From Diplocarpon mali (Eukaryota; Ascomycota; Leotiomycetes; Helotiales; Drepanopezizaceae): DNA of 64,000 nt. Where the stretch lies: positions 54,651 through 118,650 of the forward strand of contig JAENRP010000115.1 of assembly GCA_024741835.1 (NCBI GenBank), read 5' to 3'. A program made the translations under genes and the position numbers. A model generated the notes under the pieces. It searched no databases and was not told the origin of the DNA. It was given only the letters and a program-made list of their open reading frames with translations. Of this stretch, positions 8,672-64,000 are shown piece after piece; position 1 is the first letter of the stretch; each line of letters begins with the position of its first letter.

Positions 8672-11100
8672 CTTTTCTAGTACTTTTACTAGGCCGTACC
8701 ACTTGTCGGAGAGCTTTCGGCTCGGCCGGTCCAGTTTCTAATTTTTAATATTAATTAGCATATTATCTCTTATAGTCTAATCAACTGGCCGGCAGTAGAG
8801 ATCTGTAAGCCGTTTCATTTTAGCTTATTATGCTTAGAGAGACGATTAAGCGAATTAGACTACTTTTTGAGCTTTAGTAGCTATACGGAGCGCCGTTTTA
8901 CAATTTACTCTCTCGTTTGCTGTCTATAGAGGTTCTAGGTTAATTAAATTTTAAGAGGAGCGAGCTTTATAGCCATTTAGCACTTGGAAAGGGGAAATTT
9001 GCCCTAGGGATTTATAAGGTAAGGTCAATTAGGCAATATCTATTAAAAGTAAGAGATAACTCTAATTGTCTTAATAGTATAAGTAGAACAGTCTGAGGTG
9101 TTATTTTAAGTACTGGTTTATAATCTTAGTTTAGCTATCGATATTAGGGTTATAAGCTATAGTTAGCTTGACCTTTGTACCTAGTATCTAATAGAGTTCT
9201 TTTTAAAAGGAAAAGACGAATTAGGCGCCTCTATCTAATAGAATCAAGTTAGGCATACTAAAATAGCGTATCTAGTGAATTAAAAATAACTCTGCAAGGC
9301 CTTTTGCGTCGATCGAATTATAGTATAGAATCGAAACTGCCTTCTTTAATAACCTATCGATAATTATAAGGGCAAAATTATAACCGAGTTCGTTAAGCGG
9401 AAGCTTTATAAAATCTATTATTAAGTATTAGTAAGCTCGTTTGGGAATTGGCAAGGGTTATAGGAAACCTGGGGTCTTATTATAATAAGCTTTCATTCTT
9501 GAATAATAATAGTTCTGGATATAAGTGCTAATGTTGCTACTAAGACTTTTCTAATAGTATTTTCTTCCTATTAGAAGCCTTGTTTTCCTAATTCTAGCGT
9601 ATATAACGTAAGGTTGCTTATGCATATAACGAATTAGGGCTATTTGCAGTTCGGGAGGTTAGGATAGTATAACGAGTCTACCTTAAAAGAAGAGTTTGCC
9701 TTAGCTGAGTTTATAATCGAGGCTATGGCTCTGCGCCTCGTCTCGGAACTTCTATAGCTTAAGGGAGGTCTTATTAGCTTAAATGACTTTGTCGATAATA
9801 TAGTAGCTTGCCATATTATACTCGACCCTGGACGTTGGGTCGGCAGGTGCCTCTATTAGCGCGATTGGTACGGTCGTTACTCGTGGGCCGGGCCCAGGAG
9901 TGGAATCGCCTTTAGTGGCGAGTACTTCTATAGAGAGCTTGTCATTGGGTAAGAGCTGCTAATGGCGTAAAGCTCGTTTCCTAGCCTCAAGAGGGGTTAG
10001 CTCCTGGTCTTAATATAAGAGTGTGTCAGCTAGCGTATTCGTTATGCTTGTTCGGTATATGATAAGGAAGTTGAAATCAGCGAAGAACTCCGCCTAGCGA
10101 GCCTACTAGGCTATTAAGTCCTTAGTTATTATAAAGTACTTAAGGGCCTTATGATCTATATATACGTATACTGTTTTCTAAGCCTTAAGTAGCTCTGCCT
10201 TATACTAGTAGAATGATCTAAAAATCGCTAAGAGCTCCTTATTATAAATAAGGTAATTCAGCTCGGTGTTATTTATCGTCTTTAAGAAGTACCCGATTGG
10301 GTGGTAGTTCTTATCTTCCTAGAGTTAGGAGAGTACGCCGGCGACTATACCGTCGGAGGCGTCGGTCTCAAGCCTTATCTGCTTCTAAGGGTAATAGTAA
10401 TATAAAATCAGGGTCGTTTAAAGCCTTAAGCGCAGAGCTTCCTAAGCTTCCTAACAAGCGTTGTTAAAATCAAAAGGAACGTTTCTTATAAGAGCTATTA
10501 AGGGTCGGCAGATACAACTATAGCCTTGAATGAACCTTCGATAGAAGTTACAGAACCCTAGGAAGCTTTGTACGCCGCGTACGTTCTCGGCGTCCATTAT
10601 AGCAGCTCGACGATCGACGTCTTGCTAGGCCATTAGGGGTTTTATTAGCCGTAAGAGATCGATTAGTACGCGTCGATTAAAGTAGGGGATGATAGGCATA
10701 TCCTTAGGCTAGGAGATGCTGTTTTTTCCCCTTCCGTAGGACTGTTTGAGGTTATAGTGCTTTAGGAACTTCCTACTGATTAAAATGTCGGTTGCTCCTA
10801 AGCTTATGATTAGGAAAGGGAAGTTTATTTGTCGCTTATCGATTATAAGTATAAGTAAGACGGCGAATCGAATGGTTTCTCCCTTAAGGCTATTGTAGTT
10901 AGTAGGAGTAATCGGTTTAGGCAGTTTAATAAACTTTACCTTAAGTCTTTAGGAGAGCTAGTATGCTAGAGATGTCTTAATAATACTGAAAATATTAGCT
11001 CTACTATTAATATAAGTAACTGTTTTAATAAATGATCTATTTCGAGCTAGTTCTATAGGAATTAAGAACTGGCGGCCGCTTATTAATAGGCGGGAATTAA
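8672..11100 (-). pseudogene. Gypsy-1 pol remnant with missing RT palm
   Basis: Read on the minus strand: protease with DSRAN (from D-S-G-A) near 11,000 and LGATDILISRKFLKHY near 10,770. After a short stretch the frame jumps to [16 protein letters not shown] (about 10,545-10,595), which belongs to the RT connection region. The palm with the YxDD box, normally several hundred bases between these two, is not there. RNase H follows (YIDHKALKYF near 10,150). Then comes a linker holding palindrome copy 9,879-9,901, and an integrase core near 9,190-9,420 (LDRGAQFVFSFQKEL). Stops are fewer than in Gypsy-2. Confidence 0.8.
9879..9901 (-). repeat. 23-bp palindrome copy 1 (Gypsy-1 RNase H-integrase linker)
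   Basis: Plus-strand arms ACTCGTGGGCC and GGCCCAGGAGT around one G. In the minus coding frame it reads T-P-G-P-G-P-R-V. Confidence 0.8.
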
Positions 11101-11249
11101 AATCTAAGTCTTTTTACAAATTGTGACCTATGCTATAGTAGGAGTCTTTGCTATAGCTTAGCAGTTTCCTAATAGTAGGTTGTTTTCTATCTTAACTTTA
11201 GCTATTATAAACTCGCCTTACTTCTTTAGCTTTAGGTAGTCTATTGTAT

Positions 11250-12545
11250 AGTGATTAAGGGCTTTATAATTATAGTAGAGACTAGATGACGGCTTTGGGC
11301 TAGTAGACCTTTCTTAGTGAGTCGCTAGCGAGGGGGAATAAGTATAAGGAGCTAAGGAGGTAGCTATAGCGGTAGGTCTTTATAACTCCCTTTTTAATAT
11401 GCTAAGGACGCGGTCCTTTAAAGGAGAGAATGCAACGGCAGAGGCAACTTATCAAGCGTTATAGGCCTCTTCTTACTTGATATTACAGGCCTTGCGGTCT
11501 GCAATAGCTAAGAACTTATTTAAAGTAGTATAATTATTATTTATTTTATACTTCTTTACTCAAAGGTCGTTCTTTAAAGCTAAGGAGACCTTTTTATAAA
11601 TGTTATCAAACTAGTAAGACTAATCGATCTTTTTAGCTATAGCAAAGGTGACGAACTTAGATCAGAACTTATTATATAATAATAAACCTATAGTTAGCTT
11701 GCTATATTTAAGCTTAATAGATTAAATGTAGTTATAGTTAAAGAACCTTTGATCTAAGATCCTAAGGATATTAATAGCGTATATGAACTTATTAGTAAAG
11801 ATAGGATCTATATATTATAAGATTAAGTTCTAAGCTTTACCTATTGTATACTTAAAGTAGGTAGTGATCTAGTCCTCTTTTAAAGTGAAGTTGCTTAAGT
11901 ACTTTTAAATAAATACCTTTATAGCTATCTTTTAAGCATTATAGGTGATTTCGCCCTAGTAATTGCTAAAATGGGTTTAAGGGTACTTGATTTAATAGAG
12001 GTCGACGGCTAAGACTAAAGGTCTAATAATTAAAAGGTAGTAGTCTAAGGGAGGTAGTAAGTCGGCGGTAAGGGACTAAGTATTCTAAAGGCTAGCACTT
12101 AAGGAAGAAGGGGCGGTAGTATTATTTTAGAGAGCAGCGGCTATAGCAGCGCTGATAAGGTTTGCAATTTCAGCCTATTAAGCAGCTAAGAAGAGAGGGG
12201 CTGATATAGTAGGAGTAGACGTCGGTTCTTCTTTAACTTTAATTGATAGAAGGAGAGTATTTCGAGAATCCACTTACGGTCTGGGCCTAAGAGTAAAATC
12301 GGTATTAAGGGAGGTTTCTTCTTAAGTGGGCTTAGGAGGGGGAATATCTTTAGGACTGGGGTTGGTAGTAAGGCCTATAGAACTGGTAGTAGTAAGGCCT
12401 GGTGGTAGAGGTGCGGTTAACCTTTCACTTCTCTTAAGTGGTATAAGATTAGAGGTTATAAGTACTAACTCTTTTTATATTATCTGGTTTAGTCTAAAGG
12501 GACCTAATGCTAAATAGTAACCTATTTAAAAGGGGGAAGATTAGT
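11250..12545 (-). pseudogene. Gypsy-1 gag remnant
   Basis: Minus-strand frame upstream of the protease, with many stops and no clear zinc knuckle. It includes the peptide DFTLRPRP-stop-VDSRNT, encoded by palindrome copy 12,272-12,294. Assigned to gag by position (between the 5' leader and protease) rather than by a recognised domain. Confidence 0.5.
12272..12294 (-). repeat. 23-bp palindrome copy 2 (Gypsy-1 gag)
   Basis: Arms ACTTACGGTCT and GGCCTAAGAGT around G. Minus-strand reading T-L-R-P-R-P-stop-V, the same register as in Copia-C. Confidence 0.75.
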
Positions 12546-24575: not shown

Positions 24576-25181
24576 CCTGTGAACACTAGATCCGATCAGG
24601 ATAATATGACGCCGTCGTTTGGCCCTCGTACTGCTTGTTTATGACCTTGGTGTCAGGTACCAAGGTTTCTGGGCGTGACCCTGCACAACCCCGACTGTCT
24701 CTCTTATCTCCATCTCGCGCACAAACCTCATTCTCGAACAGAACATCCTCTCGGTCCTATCTCTTGGTCCTAGAGCCATATCTGTAGCTGCAATGCTGCA
24801 GAGACCATGGGGACGGCGGGCGCAGCATGCAGTTGCCAGAAGCTCCAGCTGATATTCACCCGTTTCCGGGGGGGCGCCAGCCACAAGCCAGACATCACCC
24901 GACGGGGAACTTCTTGTCCAACTTGGTATATTTGCGATTCCATAAGCGCCTTGATTTCCTCGTCTTTGATTTCCGCCTGGCGGTGTGAGGCGTCTTTAGT
25001 GGCATATTCAGCTTATCGGCTCGAGCAGAGGTCGTTGGGAATATACTGTTCCAAAAGGGGTTGTTTGGTCATATTCCCTTTCTCGTGTTCCTTTCTATAA
25101 GAGATGGCCGCCTCTCTGTTGCGACTCTCCAGCAGAGTTCCGCTCATCTGACTCCAAATTATCTTTATACCACCTTCAAAT
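24576..25181 (+). promoter_or_regulatory. Upstream region of the secreted-protein gene
   Basis: Start of the base-balanced island. A TATAAG box at 25,096-25,101 lies about 80 bases before the start codon, followed by CT-rich leader (CTCTCTGTTGCGACTCTCC). Short frames here (e.g. 24,807-25,100) have no protein features. No RIP bias is seen. Confidence 0.55.
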
Positions 25182-26479: not shown

Positions 26480-26573
26480 TTCTGGCGTATATATCTTGGA
26501 GGTGTTAAGCGTGATTGTGGTAACAATGGGAAGGAAGGATACGGCTGGCTATACATAAAGCTATTAAAATAAT
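26480..26573 (+). other. 3' flank of the secreted-protein gene
   Basis: 94 bases between the stop codon and the solo LTR; contains AATAATT/ATTAAAAT-like A/T stretches near 26,563. The LTR probably supplies or replaces part of the transcript end. Confidence 0.4.
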
Positions 26574-26745
26574 TGTCGTGCTGTATTTAGAGGTAGATTC
26601 CTAGTGGTGGCAGAAGCTTGTAAAATTCTACTCTAACTGTATATCTGAGCTCCCTTTATAGAAGTGCTCCGTGGCCACTTCAGGGGTACATTACATAAGC
26701 CAGTCCTCAGAGGCCTCAGCGCCTGAGGCTCCTCATGGCGCAACA
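26574..26745 (-). repeat. Solo LTR of the Copia-A family (172 bp, not mutated)
   Basis: Plus strand TGTCGTGCTG..GGCGCAACA; reverse complement matches the Copia-A 5' LTR at 30,082-30,253 over the same 172 bp. The flanking duplication is perfect: ATAAT at 26,569-26,573 and 26,746-26,750. CA and TG dinucleotides are retained here, unlike in the full-length copy, where they are TA. Confidence 0.95.
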
Positions 26746-26750
26746 ATAAT

Positions 26751-27686: not shown

Positions 27687-27850
27687 CTTGATGGTGTGGA
27701 GCGGAATCCGAGAAAGCTGTAGGCGGTAGGGCAGATCTGAGTAGAGAGTGAATGTGAAGCTGTATGGGAGTGATCTGAGAACGATGATGATGATGATCGT
27801 GATAATGTGTGATGTCTGGGGATACTTATACAACCCAAGCTCTGCAGAAA
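27687..27850 (-). promoter_or_regulatory. Promoter of the small secreted precursor
   Basis: Minus strand: TATAAGTATC box at about 27,821-27,830, a short ATC/GAT trinucleotide run at 27,782-27,800, then CT-rich leader (TTCACTCTCTACTCAGATC) before the start codon. Confidence 0.5.
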
Positions 27851-35899: not shown

Positions 35900-38800
35900 T
35901 GATAATTCAACCGCCTTAGTTTAATAGAACTTTAAAGATTGCCTTAGAATCGTCTTTAAAGACCCCTTTATTCTAAGGACTAATAGGAATTGACCTAAAG
36001 GCTAAGAAGAATCTTAAATATAAACCTTATTTTAAAAATTAGCTTTAGATTAAGTGAACCTTATCTTATTATAATTAGTTATAACGCTTCTATTAGCTAT
36101 TTAGTACTTAATTAGAATCTCTTAATAAACTTAGATTAAACTTTTAATAGAATCCGGAATTCTACTCCTAGGCTTAGCCTATAAGTAGAAGGATAAAAAG
36201 ACGTCTTTAAATAACTTAAGACTACTACTTACTTTTTTAATATTAACGCTTAAAAATACTAAAAATAATAACAATTTTAAACTTTTTATTAACCCTTTAT
36301 CTAAATCTTTTCAAACTCGTCTTAATTACTTTAAGATTAACTTAGATTCTAAATATTCTTTAAGCCCTTTTGAATTTCGAAGTACTCCTTTTAGCAATCA
36401 ATCTTATAATATTAAAGCTTCCCCTTTGCCTCTTATAGATTCTATTAACTTAAATAGTTAGTATAAAACGATAATAGCTGCATTTAAAGCTATTGCTAAT
36501 CACTTTCCCCTCCTTAGTTCTCTTAGCGCTCCTTACTTTATAAGCGCTAACATTACTGATTTTCTTAAGTAATATAAGGAAACTTATTACAATTTTAATA
36601 TTATATAAAAGGATATAATTTCTTAACTTCCTTACTACTATAATTATATAAGTAAAGATATTATCAAGTCCTTCCTTAAATAGAAAACTCATAGTTTATA
36701 AGAACTCCTTATTAAGGCCCTTAAATCTGAATTCCGCGAATTTGACAGATAGTAGATTCGCAATACCTTAGCTTTCTTAAAGGAATTTATTTTAATCACT
36801 TATACTCCTAAAGAACTTAAGAACTACTATCAGACTTTTACTTATATATTAAATACCTTAATCAGCTAGAAAATACTTAGCAAAGTTAAAAGAGGCTGCC
36901 TTTTCTTACTTAGATTACCTACTAGCCTTTGAAATAAGATCATTAAGCATTTTAGGATTAATAAGCAAGACCTTATAACCTTTGCCTTATTTGAGGAATT
37001 CTCGGCCTTTGCTTTAAAATCAGATCTTAGTAAAAGAACTATTGATACTATAGAGTAGGAAAAAGCCCTTACTCCCTCTTATACTAAAGACCTTAAAAGC
37101 CTAGTCTAAGAATACTTAAAAGCTCTAGAAGTTATAAAGGAGGCAAAGAAGAACCTAATAGTTATACCTTTCACTTGCAGGCCTAACCTAAGAATAAGAT
37201 CTAACCTTAGAATTAAGGAACTTAAGACCTAATTTACAAAACTCCGAATCTAAAGCTTAGAAACTAAGATTAATAATCTCTTATAAGAAAAATAGTATAT
37301 TCTTCAATTTAATAATAAATAAAACTTAGCTACTATAAGCCAACCTAGTAGTTCCTATTACCAGACTCCTGCTTCTTATCATTTAAAATAACCAGCTAAT
37401 ATAAGAACGCAATAGCTGGCTAAAGAAGGAGGAATTGATCCTAACTAGCACTCTACTAATATCAATGCTATAAGGTACTAAGGAAATAATAATAGAAGGC
37501 GACTAACCTGCAACTTTTACAATAATAAAGAACCTAACTGCACTTTATATAAATACTATAACGATTGCCCTCTTTTCCTTTGTTTTATTAATACTAAGGT
37601 TATACATATTAACAAATATAGGATGCTTTATATTAAAGATCCTAGGCCAGATGCTATCCCTATTAAAAAATACTAGAATTGTTTATAGCTATAGACTATT
37701 CGAATAATAATATATAGTATAAAGTAAGACGAGGATTTGGCCGAATAGAAGCGTATTATCGAAATCAACTCTAAGGTCTTAACTTATATATATATAAGTC
37801 TAGCTAACAATCTACCTAAGGGAATGCTTATTAATTAAACTTCGAACTAGACTGCTACTAAAGTTAAAGGTATTTCTATTTTAAAGTAGATTAATAATAA
37901 TATATCTACTGATATTAATACTACTTTTATATCCAGAAACCCTTAGAATACTCAGCGTCCTTCTAGATCTACTACTCCCTTAATACTAATAAAACCAGCC
38001 AAAGTCCAGAAATTAATATATATATCTTAGGAATCTTAATATAGAGTCCAAATGTTAAAAGATACTTAATAATCTAAGACTATAGTAGATAAGGATAAAG
38101 CCAATATAATAGACGAATTAATTAGAGATATAATAGATAAAGATAGCTTTAAGCTTAAAGATTAAGAAGTTGAAGTTATTGCGCAGACCCTTGACCTTAA
38201 GCGAAAGAGACAGATATTAAAATAGGAAAAATTCGTTAATAAATATACTAGTTTAATTATAATAAAGAAAGCTATAGAGAATATTAAAGCTTAGCAAATT
38301 AACCTTACATTTAAAGACCTATTTAGTTTAATTAAACGCTTTAATAAAGTGCTAGAAAAGCATATCTTAATTGCCTTTAAAGATTTGAATAATAATAAGG
38401 AAATGGAAATTATAATATAAAAGAACTTTAAGAAATACCTAGCCTTAATCAAATGTCTTTAGATTGCAAAAGATAAAGGAACTTAAAGGTATTATAATAT
38501 TATAGTAATAGCTTTAATATCTTAAAATATCAATTGAAATTGTTTAGCAGTTATAATAAAAAGCCCTATTATTATTTGTTTTATAAAAGAATTAGTTAAA
38601 GCAAAGGCTTTGATCGATTATAGTTTAGAAGTTAATGCAATAATTAAAAAAGTAGCGGAAATGGCTTAATTAATAATTGTTAGCAATCGACTCCTTATTT
38701 ATTTAACTATCTTTAAATTAAAATACAATTTTAATAGATAGGTGAAAAATGTAAAGGTTAGAGTTAAAGGAATTATTAATTATACTAACTTTTTAATAAT

Positions 38801-39088: not shown

Positions 39089-39111
39089 ACTTGCAGTCTT
39101 AAACTAAGAGT
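39089..39111 (+). repeat. 23-bp palindrome copy 4 (Gypsy-4 pol, N-terminal)
   Basis: ACTTGCAGTCT, T, AAACTAAGAGT; flanks extend it as TTG before and CAA after, a 29-bp palindrome. Reads T-C-S-L-K-L-R-V. Confidence 0.7.
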
Positions 39112-39273: not shown

Positions 39274-41217
39274 GAAAAATAATAAAATTACTAATGACAT
39301 TTCCATTTATACACTTTAAATTAACAACTTAGAAAATCTTTTATTTATTTTTAAAAAGGAAAATTCGGACCGCTTTATAGGATTTGATAAAAAAGGAAAG
39401 AAGTAGAGAAGTATAGTATTAGCTAATATTCGAATTATATACAAAAGCAAGGCCGATAAAGTACGACTAATAGATTAAGGAATCTCTAATAGCTTAAAGC
39501 CTAAAGGACTAGATAATTAGTTTAAATAAGATAAGAAGCTTCGACCTCTGAAGCTAAGTGGCAAATTCGATAAGTTTATTATAGGCAGATTTTCTAATAA
39601 ACCTATCGGATATTAGCTAATAAAAGAACGTTTCGATATGCTAAAAATTAGAGATAACTTAATAGAATAAGAATGCGAATTACTTTATAAAACCTTAATA
39701 AATCGAGAGGACGCCTTAGCTTTTGATTAGATAGAACTTGGCCAGATTTAAAAAGAGGTTACGCCTTATATTAAAATTAAGATAATACCTTATAAAGCCT
39801 GGTAAGAGAAAACATTCAAAGTCCTTAAAGCTCTTTAAGAAAAGGTAATCAAAATATTAAAGGATAGGCTGAAGTAAGGTATTCTCAAGTTTTATAATAG
39901 CCCTTATAAGAATAAATGGTTCCTAATTACTAAGAAAGAGAAGGGAACTTATAGATTAATAATAGTAGTAGTAAAGATAAACCGAGTAATTATTAAAGAT
40001 ACTAATATTCCTTTGAATATAGATAAGTTCTTAAATAAATTCGTAAGATTAACCTATAGCTCTTTTATTAACTTCTTCTTTAGATATAACCAATTTATTC
40101 TTAATGTTAAATCAAGAGATATAATAGTAATTCAAACCCCTCTTAAGCTACTTCAGATGATAAGATTACCTTAAGAGGCTATAAATTCGATCGCTCAATT
40201 TATTTAAGTAATTTATAAGATACTAGTAGATTGCATACCTAATATTGCACTCCCTTATATAAATAATATAAGAGTAAAAGGATTAAGATCATTTTATAAT
40301 TATAAAGAAGTTCTCCTTAATATATAACGATTTATAATAGAATACATTTAGAACTTGGACTAAGTGCTTATACGATTCCAAAGGGCAAAAGCAATAATTG
40401 GCCTAAAGTTATAATACTATTTCCTATTAATGGAAATTATTAGTTTTATTACTAATTCTAATAGCCGAAGTCCTTAAAAGGCTAAAGTACTTAAAATCGA
40501 CAAATGGAAAAGGTATAATAATATAGTAGAAGCTCGCGCGTTTATTGGCATTATGGTATACTATTGCATTTAGATCAAGGATTTTGCTAAAAAGGCAGCA
40601 CTTATTTATACCTTATTTTAGAAAGGGGCTGAGTTTCAATAGGAGGAACCTTAAATAAAGGCTATAAAATAATTGAAGCAAGCGTTGCTTAAAGCGCTAT
40701 ATCTGATTAAAATAGACTATAGAGCTAATATAGGGCTAATTATACTAATAGTTGACGCAAGCTTAATCAGATAGGGTATTATCTTTTAATAAGCTAATAG
40801 CTAATAGAAAAGACATCTAGCTTGCTTTAAAAGTAGTCTTTAAAATTTAGTAAAGATAAAGTATAATACTATTAAGTAAGAATGTAGAGGTACTTTAAAG
40901 GTAATAAAAAAGATAAGAAGCGACCTTTATAGCACTTACTTCATCTTTGAAATTAATACTAAAGTGCTAGTAGAACAATTGAATAAAGTTATAAGCGACC
41001 TATTAAGAGCCTTGCTAATAAAATAGATTGCTTAAATAAGACTAATAGACTTTAAAGTCAAATATATTCTAAGAATGAAAAATACTACTACTAATAGCCT
41101 TTTAAGAAGAACTTATCCCTACCCCTTTGATTTAATTAAAAAAGATAAAATAGATATTAATAAGTAGGTAGAAAACGAAGTTAGTTATCTATTAATATAT
41201 TGCCTTAAAGGGACTCG

Positions 41218-41240
41218 ACTCGCGAGCCTAGCCTATAAGT
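41218..41240 (+). repeat. 23-bp palindrome copy 6 (Gypsy-4 pol)
   Basis: ACTCGCGAGCC, T, AGCCTATAAGT. The open pol frame here reads R-L-A-S-L-A-Y-K, one base out of the usual Thr register, so this copy is the exception or marks a frameshift. Confidence 0.75.
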
Positions 41241-41747
41241 CAAATAAGAGAATTTTATCACTTGACTACTTAAGTGATTTTAAAGAAATTGCGAAATTTT
41301 TAATTATACTTAGATAATTAAAGACAGTTGCTCTTAAGGATTTTCAGAAATTCAAAGCTAAAGCTCTGATTTATTTAATATAAGGAAGATAATTATTTAA
41401 AAGGAGCGATAACTTATTCCTTATATAACTTTACTTAGATAATGAAAAACTAAGGGCTAAGGCTATTTAGGATATTTATAAGGAAACTGGCTATTAAGGT
41501 GCTAAGTCTACCTACTATTGACTTTTAAGGAAATTCTTTTAAAAAGGTTCTTTTAAAGATTGTAAAGCCTTTATGAAAAGTTGCATCTCCTATTAGAAAT
41601 GAAAACCTAGCTATAAAGAGAATCCCTTATTCCTAACCTAGCTATTAGGCCTTTTCTATAAAGTCAGTCTCGATATTATATAAGTACTAATAATTAAAAA
41701 TAGGATTATATATTTTATTTTAATAAAGGAAGACCTATTAGGATGGC

Positions 41748-45000: not shown

Positions 45001-47640
45001 AGAATCTGGGTTCTTATACTCTAATAAGTAATAATGACTTATAATATCGAATTTAATAAGTCTCTCTTCTATAGTTTAAAAGCTAAGCGCGTAAACCCTA
45101 TATCGCGCTAGGAACTTAAGACGACCCTTTAATTGATTAGAGAAGGAGAGGGAGCTTAAGACGCTAAGTTCGAAGGCATTTTTAAAGAATCGGAGCTTAT
45201 CGTAAGGCTAAATGCAATCGCTGCGGAAGAAGCCGCTATATAGGAAGAGCCTGCATTATAGACCGACGCTACTCTATAGCCTTTAACTAATAATATAAAA
45301 GGCCTTAACTTAAATCCAAATTCTCTAAGAGACCTACTTAGAAACTCAAGAGTGGAAGCAAGCGAACTGGAAGCTACTTCGCTAATCTTTAAGAAGGCAA
45401 ATGGTAACTAAAGCTTAAGGGTAATGATTCCTTATAAAGGCCCTATTAAAGAAGGAACTATAGATAACTTTAAGGGAGTCTTTAAAGATGAGTTCTATAA
45501 AGCGATCGGTAGATCTTTAGCCGCTATTCTATATAGGAATAGAGATAGCTTAAGGGCTTTAAGATAAAGTCTTTAATTATAAAGGCAGGCCTTAGTAAAC
45601 TCTAATAAAAGGCTAGAGGTACTGCTGCTAAAATCTAGGAGGAGCTCTAATAGTCTTATAAGAAGCGACTTAATAAAAGGAGTAGGCCTTAATAATATAA
45701 TACCTTAAGTTATAATACTAGCTTAAAGACTATAGGCTTAGGAGATAGAGCCACTTAGACTCTTAAAGGAACCTTTAATAATAATAAAAATAGAAGAGGA
45801 GACCTATAGAGAAAAGCGTAAAGAGGAACTCCTTTTTCTTAAGTAAAAGAGGATAAGACGCTTAAGCGTTAAGTAATAAGAGACTTTAAAAGTATATACT
45901 ACTACTTTAAAGCATATGCTCTTTTAAAGTAATATTAATTTACCTTACTCCTTATATACATAAGAGTTTGTATCGACCTTTTGAGCAAATGAATAGATAA
46001 GGGAGGATAGGAAGGACTATTTAACGGTTTATATAGTTGTTAAAGCTGCAGTTAATAATCGGGTAAAGGATAGAGCGCAGTCTCTTAACCGCCTATAGCA
46101 CTAAGGCTTTCTGCCGAAGCCTTTGAAAGGATAGCTAGACCTAAAGAAGCACCCTTTTAGCAAATGATTTAAGGAAAGAGGGCGCTAGGAGATTAGGAAT
46201 TTAGAATCTTAAAGTTGCTAAAGAATCGTATAAAAGGATTACTTAAAACCCTTGCTAATACTATTGAAATGGGTTTTTACCTATAAGGTTAATAGCTTTA
46301 GCGAGCTTCTAAAGTGCCGATTATAGCTAATTATACAAGAGGATCTTTAAGATAAAGCTTTAATTTTCTCAACCTATATAGCCACGCTTATAGCAAGGTC
46401 TTTTAGGGTACTAATAGCGCTTGCTATATACTTTGATATAGAAGTAAAGTAGTTTAATATTATTAATATGTTTATTAACGCTTTTAAAGACTTAAGGAGT
46501 GCTTTAGTTATATACTTTTTATTAGATGGCTTTAAGCGCCTTAGTATAATAATAGAACTGGACCGCGCGCTCTATAGGCTGAAAGACTCTTTAGTGCTAT
46601 AGTATAGGAACTTTGCAAGAACGCTTAAGGGCCTTTAACTTAAGCTACTAGGCAAGGAGCCTTGTATTTTTATAATAAAGGATCGCATAGTCTTTATAGC
46701 GTTTTACATTAATAATATTTAAGTATTATATAAGGCCTTTAACTTAGATTGAGCGACTTATCTAATTGAAGACCTAAAGAGGGCATATAAGCTTACTATT
46801 ATAGGAGATATCTCCTAATTCCTTAGAGTAAGGATTATTTAAAATAAGAAGGTAAAGAGGATCTCCTTAGTTTATAATACCTATATTAAGAAGATCGCTT
46901 AAAAGTTCGGAGCTAATATAAGGAGAGTGTTTAGTACTTTACTACTAAAGAAGGAGTTTATTAAGAACTTAGGGTAAGCTTCTTTAGAAAAGGTAAAGGA
47001 GTATTAAAAGAAAATAGGCTTTATTCTCTATATAGCGATTATAATACGCTTAAACATTACGTTTATAGCCTTTTAACTGTCTTTCTTCTTAATTAATCTA
47101 AGCTTTAAGTACCTCTTAGCTGCGGACTAGACGCTTTAATACTTATATAGTATGCGCTTCTTAAGAATTGCCTATAGCTTTAAAGCTAGGGAATACTAAT
47201 TGGTTGCATCTTTAAATGCTTCTTTTAAAGATGATTAAGAGATTTGCAGATCCTCTTAAGGATATATCTTCTTCTTATTTAAAGGACTGATTATTTAGAA
47301 AGTGAATCGCTAAGCAATTGTCACGCTCTCCTTTACTAAAGTAGAACTCTATAGTATGGTTTCTACTATAAAGGAGATAATAGCTATAAAACGCCTCTTT
47401 AAGGAGATTCGCATAGACTTCCTCTTTAAATAGAATATATATTGCAATAACTAATAGACGATTCGGCTAATTGTTATAGAGAATAAGAAGATTAAGATAA
47501 GCCTTTAATATATTGAAATTAGTAATATATAAATCCGCTAGGAGTACTAGAAAGGAAGCTTTTAGATAATCTACCTCCTTATTAGGAAGATATATATAGA
47601 TAGGCTTATTAAGAACCTAGATCGCTAGAAGTTTAAAAGC
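42060..47640 (+). pseudogene. Copia-B gag-pol remnant
   Basis: Gag at about 42.06-43.2 kb. A Cys/His motif near 43,215-43,255 (KCPYKGSKNHY) occupies the same place as in Copia-A. A protease/pre-integrase region follows, with IYYLFKLECHLLSL and NNCAATYIINSKDLL (43.56-43.65 kb). Integrase runs to about 44.9 kb, then a linker. RT near 46.2-46.9 kb has FDIINMFINA-like sequence and FYINNI near 46,703 (from FYVDDI). RNase H ends near 47.55 kb with SFTKVELYSMVSTIKEI-like sequence. The frame stays continuous over long stretches with TAA/TAG at Gln. Confidence 0.85.
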
Positions 47641-49152
47641 TTTATTTATTTATTAAACTTTTAAAGCTTTTAAATAATTGTTTAGCAATTCGCACTTACT
47701 AATAAGTAGTCACTTATTATTAGAAGACTTATACTTATAAGCTCCTACTCTTTTATAGTTACGTTTATTTGTTTTCTTTTGCAAAGCGCATTATAAAAGC
47801 TTCTCCTTTTTTAAAAATATAAAAATAGGTAATATTCCTAAGCTGCTATTATAAGGCGCGACCCTCTCTTAGATTCTCTTAGCTAAGGCTAAGAGCCGAG
47901 ATGCTATAGCTAAGAGCTTTATACAGATCTCCTTTTAAGAGAGGCCTACTGGCACTCCTTCGGCCAGAGGCCTGCTGGCAAATATACTAGTAATAGCAGG
48001 GGCGAAGGCGGGGGGTGCGGCGGGGGCGATAGGAGCGAGGGCGGCGGGAGCGGCAGCGAGGATAGGCGCAGCGACGGCAGGGGCCAGGGAGATAAACGGG
48101 GAGACTATAGCGGCGGCTGCGATAGTAGAGGCGGAGGGAATAGGAGCGGTGGCGGCAGCGATAAGGGCGAACGGGTCCAAGCTAAAGGGACTGGGAGCGA
48201 ATAGGAATAGTATACTAGGAGTAGGAGAGGCAGTAGTACTACCACTCGCAGGAGTAGCAGGCCCTCTTAGCACTAGGGTTCGATCGCTTCCATCTTTTAG
48301 AATCAGCTTAAAACTTAATAAGATTTGATAAGATATATTATAAAAGCTCTAAAGCGCACCCTTTACTATATTTAGTAGTAGCACTACCTCCTCTTTAAAA
48401 GCGCCACAGGCGCGGGCCGATATAATAGCCTTTTAAGAGGCAAGGAGAGGTCCGCTGGCCTGCTAGCAGCTATTACTTAATATTATATAATAAATATAAT
48501 ACGCATTAAAGGTGCTATTAAAGTATTAATAATCGAGATTGCTAGTACTCTTATATACAATATAACACACGCACGCGTTATTATGCTCTATCATAGGCTT
48601 AAGCATACGGCGCGCAGCAAGGGCAGGGCTCTTAGGTAGCGGCAGCAGCAGCGGGGGCGGCGGCGGCAGCAGGGATAGCGGCGGCGGCTTATTACCTAGT
48701 AGGCGCTAGGAGGACTAGGATAGGGTTCCTGCTCCTATAAGAGCGCTAGCGACTTAGCGCAAAGTTAGTATAATATAAGGTATAGGGACTTTAAGGGTCT
48801 TACTTTGCAAGGGCGGCTAGGGCTATAATAAGCAGGAGTTCCTTCTATATTTAAAAATTATTAATATAAAGACGATATTTTTAAATAATAAAGGAGGGTT
48901 ATTTTTAAAAGAAGGAAAGGAGAACCTTTGCGATAGAAATACTCTATAAGAAGCCTAATAGAGTACTAGCGTAGAATTGCGAAGATTCCTAAGCGCGCTT
49001 ATTGCCTATAGTAACCCTTCTTATTTTAAAAGGAACGACCTTTAGAAGGGCGGTATATAAGATAGAGCCTCTTTTCTTTACAACTGCTATTCTTTCTTTT
49101 ATTTTATCTATATAGTTAAGCGATTCTAGGAGTATCGCCTAACTAAGGGGTA
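47641..49152 (+). other. Copia-B 3' region with GC-rich blocks
   Basis: No pol domains. Two G+C-rich blocks (about 47,940-48,250 and 48,610-48,700, built of GGC/GCA/GCG units) stand out sharply against an AT-rich surround. It corresponds in position to the long 3' region of Gypsy-3. Confidence 0.6.
47935..48273 (-). CDS. Uninterrupted antisense frame in Copia-B 3' region (112 codons)
   Basis: ATG to stop without interruption on the strand opposite the element. The product is almost wholly Ala/Pro/Ser/Ile (SASTIAAAAIVSP, PILAAAPAALAPIAPAAPP), with no signal peptide or known domain. The underlying DNA is a GGC/GCG-rich quasi-repeat that lacks CA and so escaped RIP. Sense reading is Gly/Arg/Ser-rich. 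It may be only a compositional artefact; protein status is doubtful. Confidence 0.2.
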   Translation of the reverse strand: MLRGPATPASGSTTASPTPSILFLFAPSPFSLDPFALIAAATAPIPSASTIAAAAIVSPFISLAPAVAAPILAAAPAALAPIAPAAPPAFAPAITSIFASRPLAEGVPVGLS

Positions 49153-49350
49153 TATTATATAAAATAGGCGGAGTCTCTACTTATTCTAAAGACCCTTCAT
49201 ATAACTCCTACTAAGTTATAGACTCTTCCTTTTCTTTCCGAAGTCTCCTTATTATATATATATTAGATAATAATATAATCAATTATCTTCTTCTACTTCT
49301 GCGAGCCTCTTAAGCGACCTAATAAAGGCCCTCCAGCCGACCGTACCATA
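49153..49350 (+). repeat. Copia-B 3' LTR
   Basis: 198 bp, collinear with the 5' LTR, followed by ATGGC. Confidence 0.93.
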
Positions 49351-50260
49351 ATGGCTTAAAGGACGACTTTTAAGATCTGCTAACTCTGAATCTATTGCAA
49401 AGTTCCTTTAAGAAGATATAGTCTATTGCTATAGACTTTTTAGCAGACTAACTATTAATAAAGGCCTTGAAAACAAAGGAGTAGTTAAAGCTTTCTTATA
49501 GAAATATAGCATTAAGCGGGTTCAAATCTTAGTATATAACTTAAAAGCTAATAGAGTAGTAGAATGAGGATACTATGATATTCTTAATGGTCTATCTAAA
49601 GTTACTTATAAAGGATTTAAGAATTAGATAAAATACTTTTATAGAATACTCTTTGCTTATTAAATGATAATTTATAAACCGATTGGAATTATACTATTTT
49701 TCCTTATCTATAGTAGAGAGGTATAGCTCCCTTTTGAATCCTAATAGCCTATTTGGAGATTGTTCGACTATAGTCAAATTCAAAACCGTTCCGATTTACT
49801 TATAATAAGATGCTAACAACTTAAGCTTTAAGATATAGATATAGAGGAAATCATTTTGTAAAAGAAATAATATTAGGAAAAAGCTAAGGAAGCATAGGCT
49901 GCTTTTAAAGTATTTAAAACGCACCCTATTTGAAAAGATGATCTTATCTTAATTTACAATATTACAAAAAGTATTAATATATTAGTAGATACTAAACTTA
50001 ATTATCGATAGCTTAGTCTATTTAAGGTTAAATCTAAGTAAAAAGAAAAGGGATACTATTCTCTTTAGGAACTTAATAGAGTTGATATTAAAGGAACCTT
50101 TGCAGCCAATCGACTAAAGCGCTTTTATTAATGCGACTAGACCTTATTCCCTTTAAAAGACGAATTAGAAATTGATATAACCTTTGAATCTTCTATAGGA
50201 ACTAATAGTAATATAAGCAATTTTAAACCCTTAGATAAAGACCAAGATTTTTCCAACTTA

Positions 50261-50283
50261 ACCTATAAGCCAGTCCTGCGAGT
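50261..50283 (+). repeat. 23-bp palindrome copy 7 (Gypsy-4 integrase C-terminus)
   Basis: ACCTATAAGCC, A, GTCCTGCGAGT; reads T-Y-K-P-V-L-R-V in the pol frame. Confidence 0.7.
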
Positions 50284-51436
50284 AAAGAATATTAAAATAC
50301 CTAATAAATTATAACTTTAAGTTATTATTCCTAAAATATCTAAAGAATGCAAGTAGGAATATTAAGCGATTTCCTAGCTTATTAATTGTCCTGCCTTCCT
50401 TTAATCCTTGTTTTTACATTCTTAGTAAGGTCGCCTCCTTTATTATTTAGGATATAGATCTTTTAAGATCACTTTAAATTCTTACCTACTCTGACTTATT
50501 TTACATTCTTAATATTAGCCTTTAATTATAGCATTCCTATTACTTTCCTTAAATAATAAATAAAAAGTCCAATTTCCTTAATATATATATAGCAAACCTA
50601 TTGCAGCTTATATGCCCTTTTAATTCTTATATCCTATTGAACTCTCTTATTTATACTCCTTAACTTTTATAAGCAATATGCCTTTAAAGAACTCATAAAT
50701 GGCTTTATCTACTATAATAAGGGATAAATAATCATTAGTTATAAACTTCTCTTAGGATAGTAGAGCTATTATATTATTAAAGAGCTTTAAATCGACTTAT
50801 ATAGCCTTAGGAGATATAGAGTAATAAAAACTCCTTTTAGCTTATGCGAATGCTATTAATAACCTTTTAACCTAAGTGGCCTTTGGAATTCTCCAATTTG
50901 ACAACTTTTTAATTAAAGAATTAAAACTGAAGGGAATCTCTAAAGAGGAATTCTTAGCTGATGCAGATTAATATATAACCTTGGCTAATACTTTTAAAAT
51001 GGACTAAGATAAAAGGGAAGAATCTATTCAACAACTGGATAATTTAGCTATTAATAAGAGAGGACTCCTATTTCGTTTACGCTTCTTAATAAATATTGAT
51101 TCTAATAATAGAAGGCGAGTATTATTAAAAATTCTTAAGGAAAACACTCTTATAGCTAAAGCTATTCAGATTCTCAATTTCTTTATTATTTAAGAAGGAG
51201 TAGTAAAATTCTAAGGCAATCGAATTTGTGGTCGCAGATTTGTAGGCCTATCTAATATAATACTTATAGTAGTAAATAGGGTTATAAAAAGATCAAATTA
51301 AGCTATAGATATTACCTTACTTAATAGTACTATTATTAATATGCTAGGGTTCTACGCTTTTGCTTATAATTTACTTATTTTAAGAGAGAACTAGACTCCT
51401 ATACTAGGGTTTGGATAAGATTTCTTTAATAATAAA

Positions 51437-51836: not shown

Positions 51837-51859
51837 ACTTGCGGGCCCGGCCCGGGAGT
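51837..51859 (-). repeat. 23-bp palindrome copy 8 (Copia-C 3' region)
   Basis: ACTTGCGGGCC, C, GGCCCGGGAGT, the most GC-rich copy. Minus-strand reading T-P-G-P-G-P-Q-V. Confidence 0.8.
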
Positions 51860-51952
51860 AAAAAAATCACCCCTTAATAGAAGTGCAAAAAAAAAAAATC
51901 ACCTTATAATAGAGGTATAAAAAAAATCACCCCTTAATCAAGGTGTAGAACC
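51860..51952. repeat. Imperfect tandem repeat of about 30 bp, three units
   Basis: Units made of a run of A followed by ATCACCCCTTAAT and AGAAGTG/AAGGTG-like ends. On the minus strand this is AAGGGGTGATTTT, the same lead-in that precedes the palindrome at 53,872. Confidence 0.7.
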
Positions 51953-51959: not shown

Positions 51960-54900
51960 TTAACAATTTGATAAAAGCGGCGTAGTTAGAGCTATTTAAG
52001 CTCTTAGTAAGGCTATTAGTGGCGTTGTCTTTAGTATTCGTATACTAAAGGTCCAAATGGCCTTTCTAAAGCTCTTGCTGAATATAATAGAACTTGATAT
52101 TAATATACTTCGTTCTCTAATAATATTCGGGGTTTTCGATAAGATAAAGGGCTCTTTAGTTGTCGCAGATCATCTCGACTTTAGTAGCGTCGTCGCCGAT
52201 ATAGCCTATTTCCTTAAGTACCTGGCGTATCTAAGAGGCCTCTTATGCGAATTTGCATATAGCGACGTACTCTGCTTTTATAAATGAAAGAGCGATAATA
52301 GTCTATCGTTTAAAGGAGGTAGTAATTATGCTATTATTAAGGAAGAAGACGGCCCTAGAATAAGAGGCCCTAGTTCCTCTATTACCTACCTAATTAGAAT
52401 CGCAGTAGCTATGCAATTTCTAAAGCTCTAGGTCAATTGTTTTACTTCCGAAGGTAGTATAATAGAATCGCGTTCCTTATAAGTATTGTAAAACTCGTTT
52501 TAAAGCTACTATATATTATAGCAAAGGGTTAATAAGGAATTTGCTAAAAATAGAGCAGTAGTATAGTATATCCTAACGCGTATAGTGCGTAAGGTACTAT
52601 AAAGAACTACAGATCTCTTAGTATAGCTTCACTTCCTATAGAATGGCTTAGCCTTCAAATTTGACTATATGAACTTTATAGCTACTAGCAAAAGGAGTTA
52701 GTACGCTCTTACAATTAGTCATATGAAAACGTTTAAGAACCTTATTAACGTAGGCGTTTTAATAAAGTAAGATCGTTCTATTTTATCGATCTCTAACTAT
52801 ACGTACTCTTAAGAAGTAATTAGCCGGTTCGCTACCTATAATCTTAAAGAGGTTGCGAAGATCTCTTTTAAACTTATTATATATATTACCTTTCTTAGCT
52901 ACTATAAGGAAGTCGTTGATATAGGTGACGATGAGAATCCGAGAGGCGCGGTTGATATATACGCAATTATTAGTATTAAGAGGTTGAAAATCGAGCTTTT
53001 GCAGCTTAGACCGTAGCTTTTCTTACTATAGTTGTAGAGATTGCTTTAAGCTATATAAGGCCTTAAGAAGCTTAAGATAGTATTCTTAAGGTAAAAGAAC
53101 GACCTTATCTTAAGTGTATCTAGGAGGTAACTTGATATAGATATTAGAGTTAGCTTTTAAATTAAGGAAAGCTGTCTTAACGTCGAACTGATCTAGCTCG
53201 AAGTCGTATAGCGCTATAAGCGCAATTGCGATCTTCTAAACCGCAGATTTGCATACTTTAGCAAAAGTCTAATCGTAATCTCAACCTTATTATTATATAT
53301 AGCCTTATATAATAAATCTGACCTTCTATTAGGAGATTTTCCTATTTTAGTCTTTTTTAATTTTAAAGACAAGCCTCGATCTAAGTACTCTATCATCTTT
53401 AGAGAGTTTTAAGCGTTTTACTACTACCTATATATTCTTATAAGCGAGGGAATTGTACTTAAAGTTGATCGCAGATCGCTATTTATCGGCGTTAGTGCAA
53501 GAGAGGGCTTATTCGACTATTTTTAAGTCATTTGGATATAGAGAGTCAAGTAGGGCTATATAGAAGGCGCCTAAATAGGCTTTCTTATTATTAGAGTTAT
53601 CAGCTTTAAATCCAAGAGTAGTAGAGCAAGTAGCTCTCTTCTCAAAAGGCTAAGGGTGAGCCTTATTCTTTAAACCAAGAGGTCTTCCTCTCTTTCTTAG
53701 AGTTGGAAGCTCAGCTTTATTAGCTTCTTCTGAATCGATTCGCGGTCCCGGCCTAGGAGTAAAATCATTATTATCGTAAGAGTCAGAATTAACTCGCGGT
53801 CCCGGCCTAGGAGTGAAATCATTATTATCGTAAGAGTCAGAATTGACTCGCGGTCCCAGCCTAGGAGTGAAATCACCTCTTAATTGCGGCTTTATAATTA
53901 AGCCGTCTTTATTAAATTAAACGTAAGATAATCGAATAATCTTTTCACCTATTCGCAATAGTATATAGATTTGATAAATACTTCTACTATTAAATCTAAT
54001 AAGAGTACCTACCTTTGCTTTTAAAGCGAGTTTATTACTTTAAGTTCGCTTTTCTTTCTCAATTAGCATATAGATACAACAGCCTAGTACTCGAAGATGC
54101 TTAACTAAGGGAGTATAAGGCTTATTAGGCTTAATATTATCCTAAAAAACCTTATATAAAGTCTTGCTACTAAGAATATCAAAGGCAATAAGATTGGTAA
54201 TATATATTACTAAAAGAAGGAGGTAAGGCTAGAGAAAGGAAGGGATATTTTAATCAATTACAGCTATTTGCAACTTTTCCATTAGTATACAAATTGATCA
54301 TTCCGATCTGCCATCTTATTCTAGCGTATATAGAGTAGATTCTTTTAAAATTATACCAAGGTTTTCTATAAGTATTCGCATCTATATAAGAGAGTACTCC
54401 TTACCTCTATCAGTTCTCTACCGCTTGATTATATAATTGTACTAAGTTTGTAAAAGGCTAATCATTTTCTTATTTGCTTTAAAGGCGTTAGATTTATTTA
54501 TATAAGTCCATCCCTACCTAGCTATTATAGCTGCGCAAGTAAAGATAGAAGCGTATTTATAGCCGTTAAGGCCAGTTGGCTTTAGATGAACCATATTAAC
54601 GTATAGCTTATTAAATGCCTTTATAGGTCGAAGGCAAGCTAAACGTTTATTAATATATTAAAGAGGTCTGCCTTTCTCGCAAGAGCGCAGATTCGCGTCT
54701 TCCCTGATTTTATTTCCTTAATCTGTATATTAGTAATAGCAGATTGGGTCTTTCTGACCGTTTATAGGCCAGCGTAGCCTAATCGACAGTACTATAGCTT
54801 AATATTAAGAGGTCTATTCTTAATAGTAGCTAAGAGAGTATATCCACTTATATAACTAGAGGAGTTAGTAGAAGGCTATTCCTTATTAATATACATATTA

Positions 54901-55257: not shown

Positions 55258-55334
55258 AGTCCTAGGCCTGGCCTGCGAGTGGAAATTGGCCCTAGGGAGG
55301 AGTCGGAATTGAGTCCTAGGCCCGGCTCGCGAGT
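55258..55334 (-). repeat. Two 54-bp-spaced palindromes (copies 12 and 13) in Copia-C gag-protease
   Basis: 55,258-55,280 (AGTCCTAGGCC, T, GGCCTGCGAGT) and 55,312-55,334 (AGTCCTAGGCC, C, GGCTCGCGAGT). Minus-strand readings T-R-R-P-G-L-G-L and T-R-E-P-G-L-G-L, next to the protease site. Confidence 0.88.
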
Positions 55335-55653: not shown

Positions 55654-55658
55654 CTAAC

Positions 55659-57040: not shown

Positions 57041-57059
57041 GCATGCGGGGCTCATAACC

Positions 57060-57391: not shown

Positions 57392-57414
57392 ACTTATAGT
57401 CTTAGATTAGGAGT
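57392..57414 (+). repeat. 23-bp palindrome copy 14 (X1), heavily mutated
   Basis: ACTTATAGTCT, T, AGATTAGGAGT, preceded by TTG; reads T-Y-S-L-R-L-G-V in the X1 frame. It sits at the position homologous to copy 17 in X2. Confidence 0.65.
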
Positions 57415-58777: not shown

Positions 58778-58800
58778 ACTTGCAGTCCTAGCTTATAAGT
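58778..58800 (+). repeat. 23-bp palindrome copy 15 (X1)
   Basis: ACTTGCAGTCC, T, AGCTTATAAGT; reads T-C-S-P-S-L-stop-V, codon-aligned. Confidence 0.75.
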
Positions 58801-59662: not shown

Positions 59663-59685
59663 ACTCGCGAGCCCGGCCTACAAGT
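59663..59685 (+). repeat. 23-bp palindrome copy 16 (X1)
   Basis: ACTCGCGAGCC, C, GGCCTACAAGT; reads T-R-E-P-G-L-Q-V, codon-aligned and intact. Confidence 0.85.
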
Positions 59686-61315: not shown

Positions 61316-61338
61316 ACTTATAGGCCCGGCCTATAGGT
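61316..61338 (+). repeat. 23-bp palindrome copy 17 (X2)
   Basis: ACTTATAGGCC, C, GGCCTATAGGT; reads T-Y-R-P-G-L-stop-V. Confidence 0.8.
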
Positions 61339-61501: not shown

Positions 61502-61524
61502 ACTCGCGAGCCCGGCCTATAGGT
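61502..61524 (+). repeat. 23-bp palindrome copy 18 (X2)
   Basis: ACTCGCGAGCC, C, GGCCTATAGGT; reads T-R-E-P-G-L-stop-V. Confidence 0.82.
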
Positions 61525-62731: not shown

Positions 62732-62754
62732 ACTCCTAGGCCTAGCTCGCGGGT
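62732..62754 (+). repeat. 23-bp palindrome copy 19 (X2)
   Basis: ACTCCTAGGCC, T, AGCTCGCGGGT; reads T-P-R-P-S-S-R-V. Confidence 0.8.
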
Positions 62755-63553: not shown

Positions 63554-63576
63554 ACTCCTAAGCCTGGCTTGCAACT
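63554..63576 (+). repeat. 23-bp palindrome copy 20 (X2)
   Basis: ACTCCTAAGCC, T, GGCTTGCAACT; reads T-P-K-P-G-L-Q-L. Confidence 0.75.
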
Positions 63577-63892
63577 TGATTTAGCAAAGGGCAAGGCTAA
63601 GGAAGTAGTATCTATAGAATCTCCTGCCTCCCCTTCCTCTATTACCGATAATTCCCTTAAGGATAATGATAATAATAATAATAATAATACTACTATATAA
63701 GTCTCTCTTCTTATTAGTAGAAGCCGCTAAAGTATACTAGTATTTGCCTAAACTACTAAAGCTCTTATTATACTAAGACCTATCTTATCGGATACTAATA
63801 GCAATGCTATAAGAAGAAGTGGTCGTTTGGTAAAGAGAGTATTATCTAGTAATAGGTCTCCCTGCCTTTTAAAGAGAACTAAGGAAAATTGA

Positions 63893-64000
63893 TATTTAAG
63901 TTAATACTATTTTTAATTGTTTTTTGCAATTCTATAGCTTATTTATTTTGCTAGTTTCATTTTCTAACTCCTAGGCCTAGCCTATAGGTGAAAAGCTATA
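63893..64000. other. Region after X2 to window end
   Basis: AT-rich; only the palindrome copy at 63,967 is recognisable. It could be the start of a further frame outside the window. Confidence 0.5.
63967..63989 (+). repeat. 23-bp palindrome copy 21 (after X2)
   Basis: ACTCCTAGGCC, T, AGCCTATAGGT, followed by GAAAA. Lies past the X2 stop, near the window edge. Confidence 0.8.

What the first reader, a model, noticed from the sequence alone, without database searches (positions are those of the whole stretch)
9879..63989. A dispersed palindrome of exactly 23 bp inserted in frame in unrelated elements
I found 21 copies, each 23 bp, beginning ACT (or its transition variant) and ending AGT, with complementary 11-base arms around one centre base (example arms ACTCGCGAGCC and GGCCTGCGAGT). 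Flanks often extend the symmetry (TTG before, CAA or GAA after). They occur in Gypsy-1, Gypsy-4, Copia-C, X1 and X2, which are otherwise unrelated. Where the frame is known, ACT is a whole codon and the peptide is T-x-x-P-x-x-x-V/L in nearly all cases, on either strand. They sit mostly in inter-domain linkers. Palindromic elements inserted in frame within coding sequence are known in Rickettsia; I know of no equivalent in fungal nuclear retroelements. Whether the DNA is mobile or the peptide is selected is inference.
Basis: partly seen in the sequence, partly recalled or inferred. Interest (0 to 1): 0.88.

Follow-up and report, generated by a model that had tools for sequence, protein, structure and literature searches.

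The report
Tiny palindrome riding inside fungal retrotransposons
A 23-base mirror-symmetric DNA word occurs over two thousand times in the genome of a leaf-spot fungus, where the copies examined sit mostly in one fixed reading frame in linker regions of several unrelated jumping genes, and it looks like a minute DNA parasite (or a shared control site) living inside larger ones.

Summary
The window has 22 copies of a 23-bp palindrome, ACTCSCGGKCCNGGMCCGSGAGT plus transition decay, against 0.4 expected. The genome has 2,272 strict places and none for the reversed control. Arms occur almost only in pairs (85 of 87 in 304 kb). Weak symmetry runs about 6 bp further out on both sides. The copies examined lie in decayed retroelement DNA: two Gypsy and two Copia families plus unclassified stretches, at domain boundaries and in one or two 3' untranslated regions. 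At 10 of 11 sites with an anchored frame, ACT is a whole codon (T-x-x-P-x-x-x-V); window 41218 is in phase 2. Copia homologues of Rhynchosporium and Gypsy homologues of Drepanopeziza brunnea lack the peptide at the compared sites; full-length predicted Diplocarpon coronariae proteins carry it. Two unnamed relatives carry TREP variants. Best reading: a DNA-level palindrome spread into several active retrotransposons, was kept where a 3n insertion is harmless, and multiplied with them and by tandem duplication. Movement, insertion length and target duplication are not shown. A selected dimeric DNA-binding site or a selected peptide stays possible. Literature searches listed no fungal nuclear equivalent.

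The parts
9879..9901 (-). palindrome copy, Gypsy-2 RNaseH-integrase linker, phase 0 (TPGPGPRV on the minus strand)
   Evidence: domain order from the homologous copy in L026
12272..12294 (-). palindrome copy, Gypsy-2 gag, phase 0 on the minus strand
36164..36186 (.). palindrome copy about 1 kb upstream of the Gypsy-1 gag copy; frame not anchored, context open
37173..37195 (+). palindrome copy, Gypsy-1 gag, phase 0
39089..39111 (+). palindrome copy, Gypsy-1 protease-RT linker (first), phase 0 in the pol frame of the less decayed copy L031
39251..39273 (+). palindrome copy, Gypsy-1 protease-RT linker (second), phase 0 in the pol frame
40655..40942 (+). Gypsy-1 RNase H (PF17919; 25.3 bits, below Pfam's cut-off in this copy, above it in L031), anchor of the pol frame
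41218..41240 (+). palindrome copy, Gypsy-1 RNaseH-integrase linker, PHASE 2 (LASPACES in the less decayed copy): the exception
41441..41611 (+). Gypsy-1 integrase H2C2 zinc domain (PF17921; 23 bits, below cut-off in this copy, above it in L031)
50261..50283 (+). palindrome copy, C-terminal end of Gypsy-1 pol, phase 0 (TYKPVLRV)
51837..51859 (.). palindrome copy in the 3' untranslated region of Copia-1 (between pol stop and 3' LTR): non-coding
53738..53760 (-). palindrome copy 3 of 3, 54-bp array in the Copia-1 integrase-RT linker, phase 0
53792..53814 (-). palindrome copy 2 of 3, same array, phase 0
53846..53868 (-). palindrome copy 1 of 3, same array, phase 0
55258..55280 (-). palindrome copy, just upstream of the Copia-1 protease, phase 0
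55312..55334 (-). palindrome copy, 54 bp from the last, same site, phase 0
57392..57414 (.). palindrome copy in the 3' region of Gypsy-1; no Pfam domain there, coding status open
58778..58800 (.). palindrome copy in the 3' region of Gypsy-1, 885 bp from the next, coding status open
59663..59685 (.). palindrome copy in the 3' region of Gypsy-1, coding status open
61316..61338 (.). palindrome copy in an unclassified stretch; in one frame with the next three on either strand, coding strand open
61502..61524 (.). palindrome copy, same unclassified stretch and frame
62732..62754 (.). palindrome copy, same unclassified stretch and frame
63554..63576 (.). palindrome copy, same unclassified stretch and frame
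63967..63989 (.). palindrome copy at the window end, other frame; context open

Best explanation
A short, DNA-level palindrome (core 23 bp, weakly symmetric to about 35 bp) spread as a unit into several different LTR retrotransposon families of a Diplocarpon-like fungus while these were active. It persisted where an insertion of 3n bases was harmless: polyprotein domain linkers, chiefly in the one codon phase that gives the soft Pro/Gly linker T-x-x-P-G-x-x-V and rarely makes a stop, and 3' untranslated regions. It then multiplied passively with its carriers (a parasite of parasites) and locally by tandem duplication, and later decayed with them by transitions (RIP, recalled from fungal biology, not tested as such). 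Shown: unit, copy number, carriers, sites, phase, inheritance within families, absence of the peptide in homologues from related genera. Inferred: copying between families, its enzyme (unknown; template switching in reverse transcription or an unknown transposase), and the insertion length.
For: 2,272 genome places, 0 in the control; arms paired in 85 of 87. Carriers include Gypsy and Copia families at unlike positions. DNA symmetry beyond the peptide: the second base outside the core is a purine on 44 of 44 outward flanks of 22 sites; mean match to SAAATC is 3.5 of 6 at the edge against 1.6-2.2 farther out, and 0 of 5,000 random offsets are as good. One non-coding site, confirmed by the end of a D. 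coronariae protein exactly at the pol stop, and one apparent second. Phase-2 copy at 41218. A particular asymmetric unit (C-arm plus G-arm) predominates: 1,845 of 2,272, with C/C only 31. Peptide absent from the Rhynchosporium Copia (P0003, P0008) and D. brunnea Gypsy (P0223, P0224) homologues at the compared sites, present in D. coronariae. Copies of one Copia site hold 1 to 4 strict motifs with 3n spacing (decayed motifs may be missed).
Against: No clean empty site: every copy compared within a family keeps the motif (11, 5, 9, 9 and 5 copies at five sites); the only partial ones are a truncated third motif in L016 and L029. No target duplication: the bases next to the core agree in transition class at 8 of 22 sites, 6 of 18 if arrays are left out (my count). 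The flank signal fades gradually, like a target or binding preference, instead of ending sharply. No longer element with these arms was seen in 304 kb. The phase bias points partly to the peptide. Flanking blocks are not shared between families above the null. Within families the motif shows no movement.
Confidence: 0.45

Rival explanations
1. The palindrome is a binding site for a dimeric DNA-binding protein (host factor or retroelement protein) that benefits the retroelements; each family gained several sites and selection keeps them. The codon phase is mere tolerance.
For: Degenerate positions 5 and 9 in both arms, a free centre base and weak flanks on both sides look like a dimer logo. Several copies per element, also in a 3' untranslated region. 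One copy, a retroelement one, in 13 sampled pieces of GC 0.44 or more.
Against: An 11-base arm plus flank is long for de novo selection. Arm types are not drawn independently: C/C 31 of 2,272 although C-arms are 42% of arms (families weigh unequally). Two- to eight-motif arrays sit inside coding sequence, an odd place for control sites.
Confidence: 0.25
2. The peptide is what is selected: T-x-x-P-G-x-x-V is a linker, cleavage or interaction motif shared by several retroelement polyproteins; the DNA symmetry is a by-product of its origin.
For: 10 of 11 anchored sites in phase 0 (P = 1.3e-4 for equal phases, 0.015 if weighted by which phases are open). Sites at domain junctions of Gag-Pol. Related peptides TREPGARV, TREPVPPV and TREPVSQA in the nearest unnamed relatives. 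C/C, the form without Arg, is rare.
Against: The motif is also non-coding, one coding copy is in phase 2, and both arm orders occur in coding phase 0. Of 129 held sites none has a transversion at third codon positions 3, 6, 18 or 21 (weak, since the scan favours these letters). The purine at +2 is a first codon base on one side and, as its complement, a second codon base on the other (for phase-0 sites).
Confidence: 0.15
3. A coding minisatellite: a linker repeat that expands by slippage and was passed between elements by recombination or template switching together with its spacers.
For: Arrays with units of 39, 45, 48, 54, 66 and 72 bp differing between copies. The Gypsy-2 and Copia-2 spacers look alike over 16 bp.
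Against: That likeness (score 24) lies within the null (median 19, 95% 28). Many sites hold a single motif. Slippage does not explain the palindrome or its spread to unlike sites.
Confidence: 0.1
4. Translational bypass: the motif is a hairpin that ribosomes skip or frameshift on, so that its length need not be 3n.
For: GC-rich palindrome; some motifs lie within a few hundred bases of the protease-to-RT frame change in both Gypsy families.
Against: Upstream and downstream frames are the same across the motif at the anchored sites, and spacings in coding arrays are 3n. Predicted D. coronariae proteins include the motif peptide, though these are gene predictions.
Confidence: 0.03

Closest known systems
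Rickettsia palindromic elements (RPE); Wolbachia relatives seen only as a reference title
   Same: palindromic DNA with open reading frames, fused in frame in protein genes, hairpin-capable, many copies (passages of review PMC2229807)
   Different: RPE are 105-146 bp and occur in conserved host genes and between genes; here 23-35 bp, found so far only in retroelement-type DNA of a eukaryotic nucleus; mobility unproven
Short palindromes of fungal mitochondria (Fusarium A/T palindromes; Neurospora palindromes and Podospora ultra-short invasive elements seen only in a reference list; yeast GC clusters recalled and seen in listings)
   Same: short, palindromic, dispersed, optional between relatives (passages of PMC7218506)
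   Different: mitochondrial and, in the passages seen, intergenic; here nuclear and mostly in frame in coding linkers of retrotransposons
MITEs
   Same: short inverted-repeat DNA without coding capacity of its own
   Different: no internal sequence, no target duplication found, no longer element with the same ends in 304 kb
Conserved hairpin site of fungal GalEa Copia elements
   Same: conserved palindrome in fungal Copia elements (passages of PMC5445492)
   Different: 9 bp, next to the 5' LTR where a primer binding site is expected, described for one clade

Membership tests
Rickettsia-type palindromic coding elements | palindromic DNA unit dispersed in the genome | tested here: met
   2,272 places, control 0; arms paired 85 of 87
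Rickettsia-type palindromic coding elements | insertion within protein-coding sequence in frame | tested here: met
   11 anchored coding sites, frame kept on both sides; that they are insertions rests on protein alignments with homologues that lack the peptide
Rickettsia-type palindromic coding elements | length about 100-150 bp | tested here: not met
   core 23 bp, symmetry fades by about 35 bp
Rickettsia-type palindromic coding elements | present in cellular protein genes | tested here: inconclusive
   one copy, in a retroelement, in 13 sampled pieces of GC 0.44 or more, 130 kb or about 0.3% of the genome
MITE | target-site duplication | tested here: not met
   adjacent bases agree in class at 8 of 22 sites; longer duplications were not tested systematically
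MITE | autonomous element with the same terminal repeats | tested here: inconclusive
   no solo arms above background in 304 kb; rest of the genome not examined for this
mitochondrial GC clusters / ultra-short invasive elements | mitochondrial location | tested here: not met
   copies on many contigs, up to 560 kb, of a 49.4-Mb assembly, among LTR elements
dimeric DNA-binding site | a protein that binds it | not testable with these tools
   needs binding assays

The most novel reading that the evidence does not exclude
A mobile palindrome of about 23-35 bp, very small for a mobile element of a nuclear genome, is a hyperparasite of retrotransposons: it jumps between unrelated Gypsy and Copia families, is written into their polyproteins as a harmless linker peptide, and is spread by them. 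A variant in a related species would show arms changed together (GAG/CTC for GGG/CCC), inferred so far from peptides only.
Probability: 0.35. Interest if true: 0.87.

Novelty: new variant of a known kind. Interest (0 to 1): 0.72.

Why it matters
Protein-coding palindromes were described in Rickettsia as a way for selfish DNA to enter genes. A nuclear fungal case inside retrotransposons would show a like path in eukaryotes, a second layer of parasitism, and a source of linker peptides. Many copies, several carriers and related genomes make the question of how such tiny palindromes move directly testable by comparison.

Tried and rejected
Chance: rejected. The loose 14-base template alone was not enough (28 hits against 5-19 in its null); the transition-aware class pattern was.

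Descent in one ancestral domain: rejected, since sites lie in gag, protease-RT, RNaseH-integrase, integrase-RT, pre-protease and 3' untranslated positions of different superfamilies.

Ends of a longer transposon: no solo arms above background. One-base target duplication: 8 of 22, not supported. Shared flanking blocks between families: best score within the null; four Copia-1 rows of that call had wrong coordinates and are disregarded, and one search uses corrected ones. Ongoing exchange between sites: within a family the motif varies almost only by transitions (four positions with a transversion over five sites). Empty sites: of 62 motif queries one gave an empty-like match, a partial deletion.

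Rfam: 0 families in the window. Viral contigs: 0. One genome per prokaryote species: 0. Window 60-64 kb: no Pfam match in six frames. L031 minus strand: none. Literature, 7 searches: asked for palindromes with retrotransposons or RIP (0, 0 and 25 papers, 10 listed); some searches asked for bacterial or mitochondrial palindromes; for the D. coronariae genome. None of the listed titles is a fungal nuclear case, but only open-licence papers are held and I read passages of four.
Full report
What is there. A transition-tolerant scan finds 22 copies in the window, against a mean of 0.4 in 40 order-2 Markov windows, all of these at the loosest score. The genome that holds the window (49.4 Mb, 676 contigs) has 2,272 places that fit ACTYSYRRKYYNRRMYYRSRAGT exactly, and none that fit the reversed control. 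Fifty places fit the C/G-armed form without any transition. The arms come in pairs: of 87 arm matches in 304 kb (the window and L009-L032), 85 have their partner, and the 2 solo ones lie below a block-shuffled background of 3-8.

Where it is. Of 20 ten-kb pieces taken at coordinates chosen blind, 6 held copies: L016, L018, L020, L025 and L026 (GC 0.32-0.36), and L024 (GC 0.456) with one copy that belongs to the Copia-1 3' site. The other 14 had none: 12 of the 13 pieces with GC 0.44 or more, and two AT-rich ones. The sample is 0.4% of the genome, so host genes are not excluded.

Carriers (names are mine). Gypsy-1 (L031; window 36-42 kb and 49-50 kb): RNase H and H2C2 above Pfam's cut-off in L031, a protease just below it; both domains below cut-off in the window copy. 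Gypsy-2 (L026, L029; window 9.9-12.3 kb): RT and RNase H above cut-off in L026, H2C2, rve and SH3 below it. Copia-1 (L030, L053; window 51.8-55.3 kb): by its homologues, the best of which, P0001, carries RVT_2 and other Copia domains. Copia-2 (L026, L018): a weak protease-region match (Pol_BBD, E 0.0097, below cut-off) and RVT_2 above cut-off. A stretch at 61-64 kb has no Pfam match.

Sites. Gypsy-1: gag, protease-RT (two, 162 bp apart), RNaseH-integrase, pol C-terminus, and three in a 3' region without Pfam match. Gypsy-2: gag, protease-RT (two, three, or two and a truncated third, 45 bp apart), RNaseH-integrase (one or two). Copia-1: before the protease, integrase-RT (array), and 73 bp behind the pol stop codon, before a 228-bp repeat that is 90% identical to one upstream and taken as the LTR. 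The full-length protein P0001 ends exactly at this stop, so that copy is non-coding. Copia-2: an eight-motif array between protease and pre-integrase (the latter domain named by eye), and one behind the apparent pol end.

Frame. At 11 sites the coding frame is anchored by Pfam domains, by alignment to homologous proteins, or by a long low-stop frame. Ten have ACT as a codon. The exception is the RNaseH-integrase site of Gypsy-1 (window 41218, L031 4857), where the peptide is LASPACES. For equal phases P = 1.3e-4. Counting which phases are open around these same sites (10, 5 and 3 of 11), P = 0.015; this is conservative because the sites were free to gain stops in unused phases. So part of the bias is avoidance of stops, and part probably preference for a Pro/Gly linker. 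At 61-64 kb four motifs share one frame on either strand, with 57 and 59 stops, so the coding strand is open. Predicted D. coronariae proteins show 5, 2, 2, 3 and 2 phase-0 peptides (P0001, P0122, P0123, P0133, P0163; the last four share the same Gypsy-2 site) and none matching my phase-1 or phase-2 expressions.

DNA level. In the 44 outward flanks of 22 sites (arrays counted once, my grouping), the second base is a purine 44 times. The match to SAAATC averages 3.5 of 6 at the edge, against 1.6-2.2 farther out, and 0 of 5,000 random offsets reach it. The unit is therefore nearer 35 bp, with a fading edge. C/G arm pairs make up 1,845 of 2,272 by subtraction, G/G 396 and C/C 31 (families weigh unequally). 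By site I count 15 C/G, 7 G/G and no C/C of 22, reading decayed letters back by transition (by eye). Among 129 held sites, departures from the class pattern are mainly transitions at positions 5 and 19 (56 of 67), with 10 transversions, at positions 2, 10, 14 and 22. Within families the motif is inherited, with changes almost only by transition. The number of strict motifs varies between copies of one site.

Relatives. The best named hits are Diplocarpon coronariae proteins for Copia-1 and Gypsy-2; the Gypsy-1 search gave none. The genome is probably Diplocarpon (Drepanopezizaceae, Helotiales); I did not settle the species. Published D. coronariae assemblies are 50-54 Mb (passages of PMC11527701). 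Rhynchosporium Copia homologues (P0003, P0008) and D. brunnea Gypsy homologues (P0223, P0224) lack the peptide at the compared sites, but the linkers are too variable to mark exact insertion ends. The nine Gypsy-1 homologues P0086-P0094 lack it at the aligned RNaseH-integrase site.

A possible second species. Among 236 homologues not named Diplocarpon (323,006 aa; of the 790 hits only the best 120 are included), the expression T[RPH][EGR]P[GV][PLASV][RGPQ][VA] matches only P0124 (twice) and P0086 (once). P0086 is the best hit of the Gypsy-1 search and P0124 the best hit of the Gypsy-2 search not named Diplocarpon. P0124 reads DLTREPGARVES in the RNaseH-integrase linker and TTREPVPPVKS in the protease-RT linker. 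The expression was written after seeing these hits; looser ones match other proteins too (T..PG..[VL]: 8 matches).

Mechanism. I favour a DNA unit that entered several active families and was filtered by tolerance. What moved it is unknown. The fading flanks and the lack of a target duplication leave a selected dimer site as the main rival, and the phase bias leaves a peptide role. I rank these 0.45, 0.25 and 0.15.

Novelty. Bacterial protein-coding palindromes (passages of PMC2229807) and fungal mitochondrial palindromes (passages of PMC7218506) are the nearest kinds I found. Seven searches listed no nuclear fungal case; three of them asked for one.

Noticed in passing
window 41746-49352: Residues 1-942 of Gypsy-1 pol match 38921-41746 and residues 942-1257 match 49352-50299, so about 7.6 kb of other DNA seems nested in the element.
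   Followed up: partly
L031 6400-10000; window 57-60 kb: Gypsy-1 seems to carry a 3' region of over 3 kb without Pfam match, with two minus-strand open frames of 132 and 145 aa; possibly an extra or antisense gene.
   Followed up: partly
window 51860-51938; L030 7508-7588: The Copia-1 3' untranslated region has tandem units of about 28 bp, one of which holds the palindrome; GGTGATTT also precedes motifs in Copia-1 integrase-RT and Gypsy-1 protease-RT.
   Followed up: partly
window 24639-27878: GC-rich island (GC 0.50) with open frames that look like a secreted host protein, without any palindrome.
   Followed up: no
window 47914-48688: Repeat-rich, G-rich coding-like stretch (33-, 21- and 18-bp units) in AT-rich DNA.
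   Followed up: no
L018 6841: A more decayed motif-like stretch 61 bp from the one at 6902, behind the apparent Copia-2 pol end: a spacing that is not 3n, as expected outside coding sequence (seen by eye).
   Followed up: no
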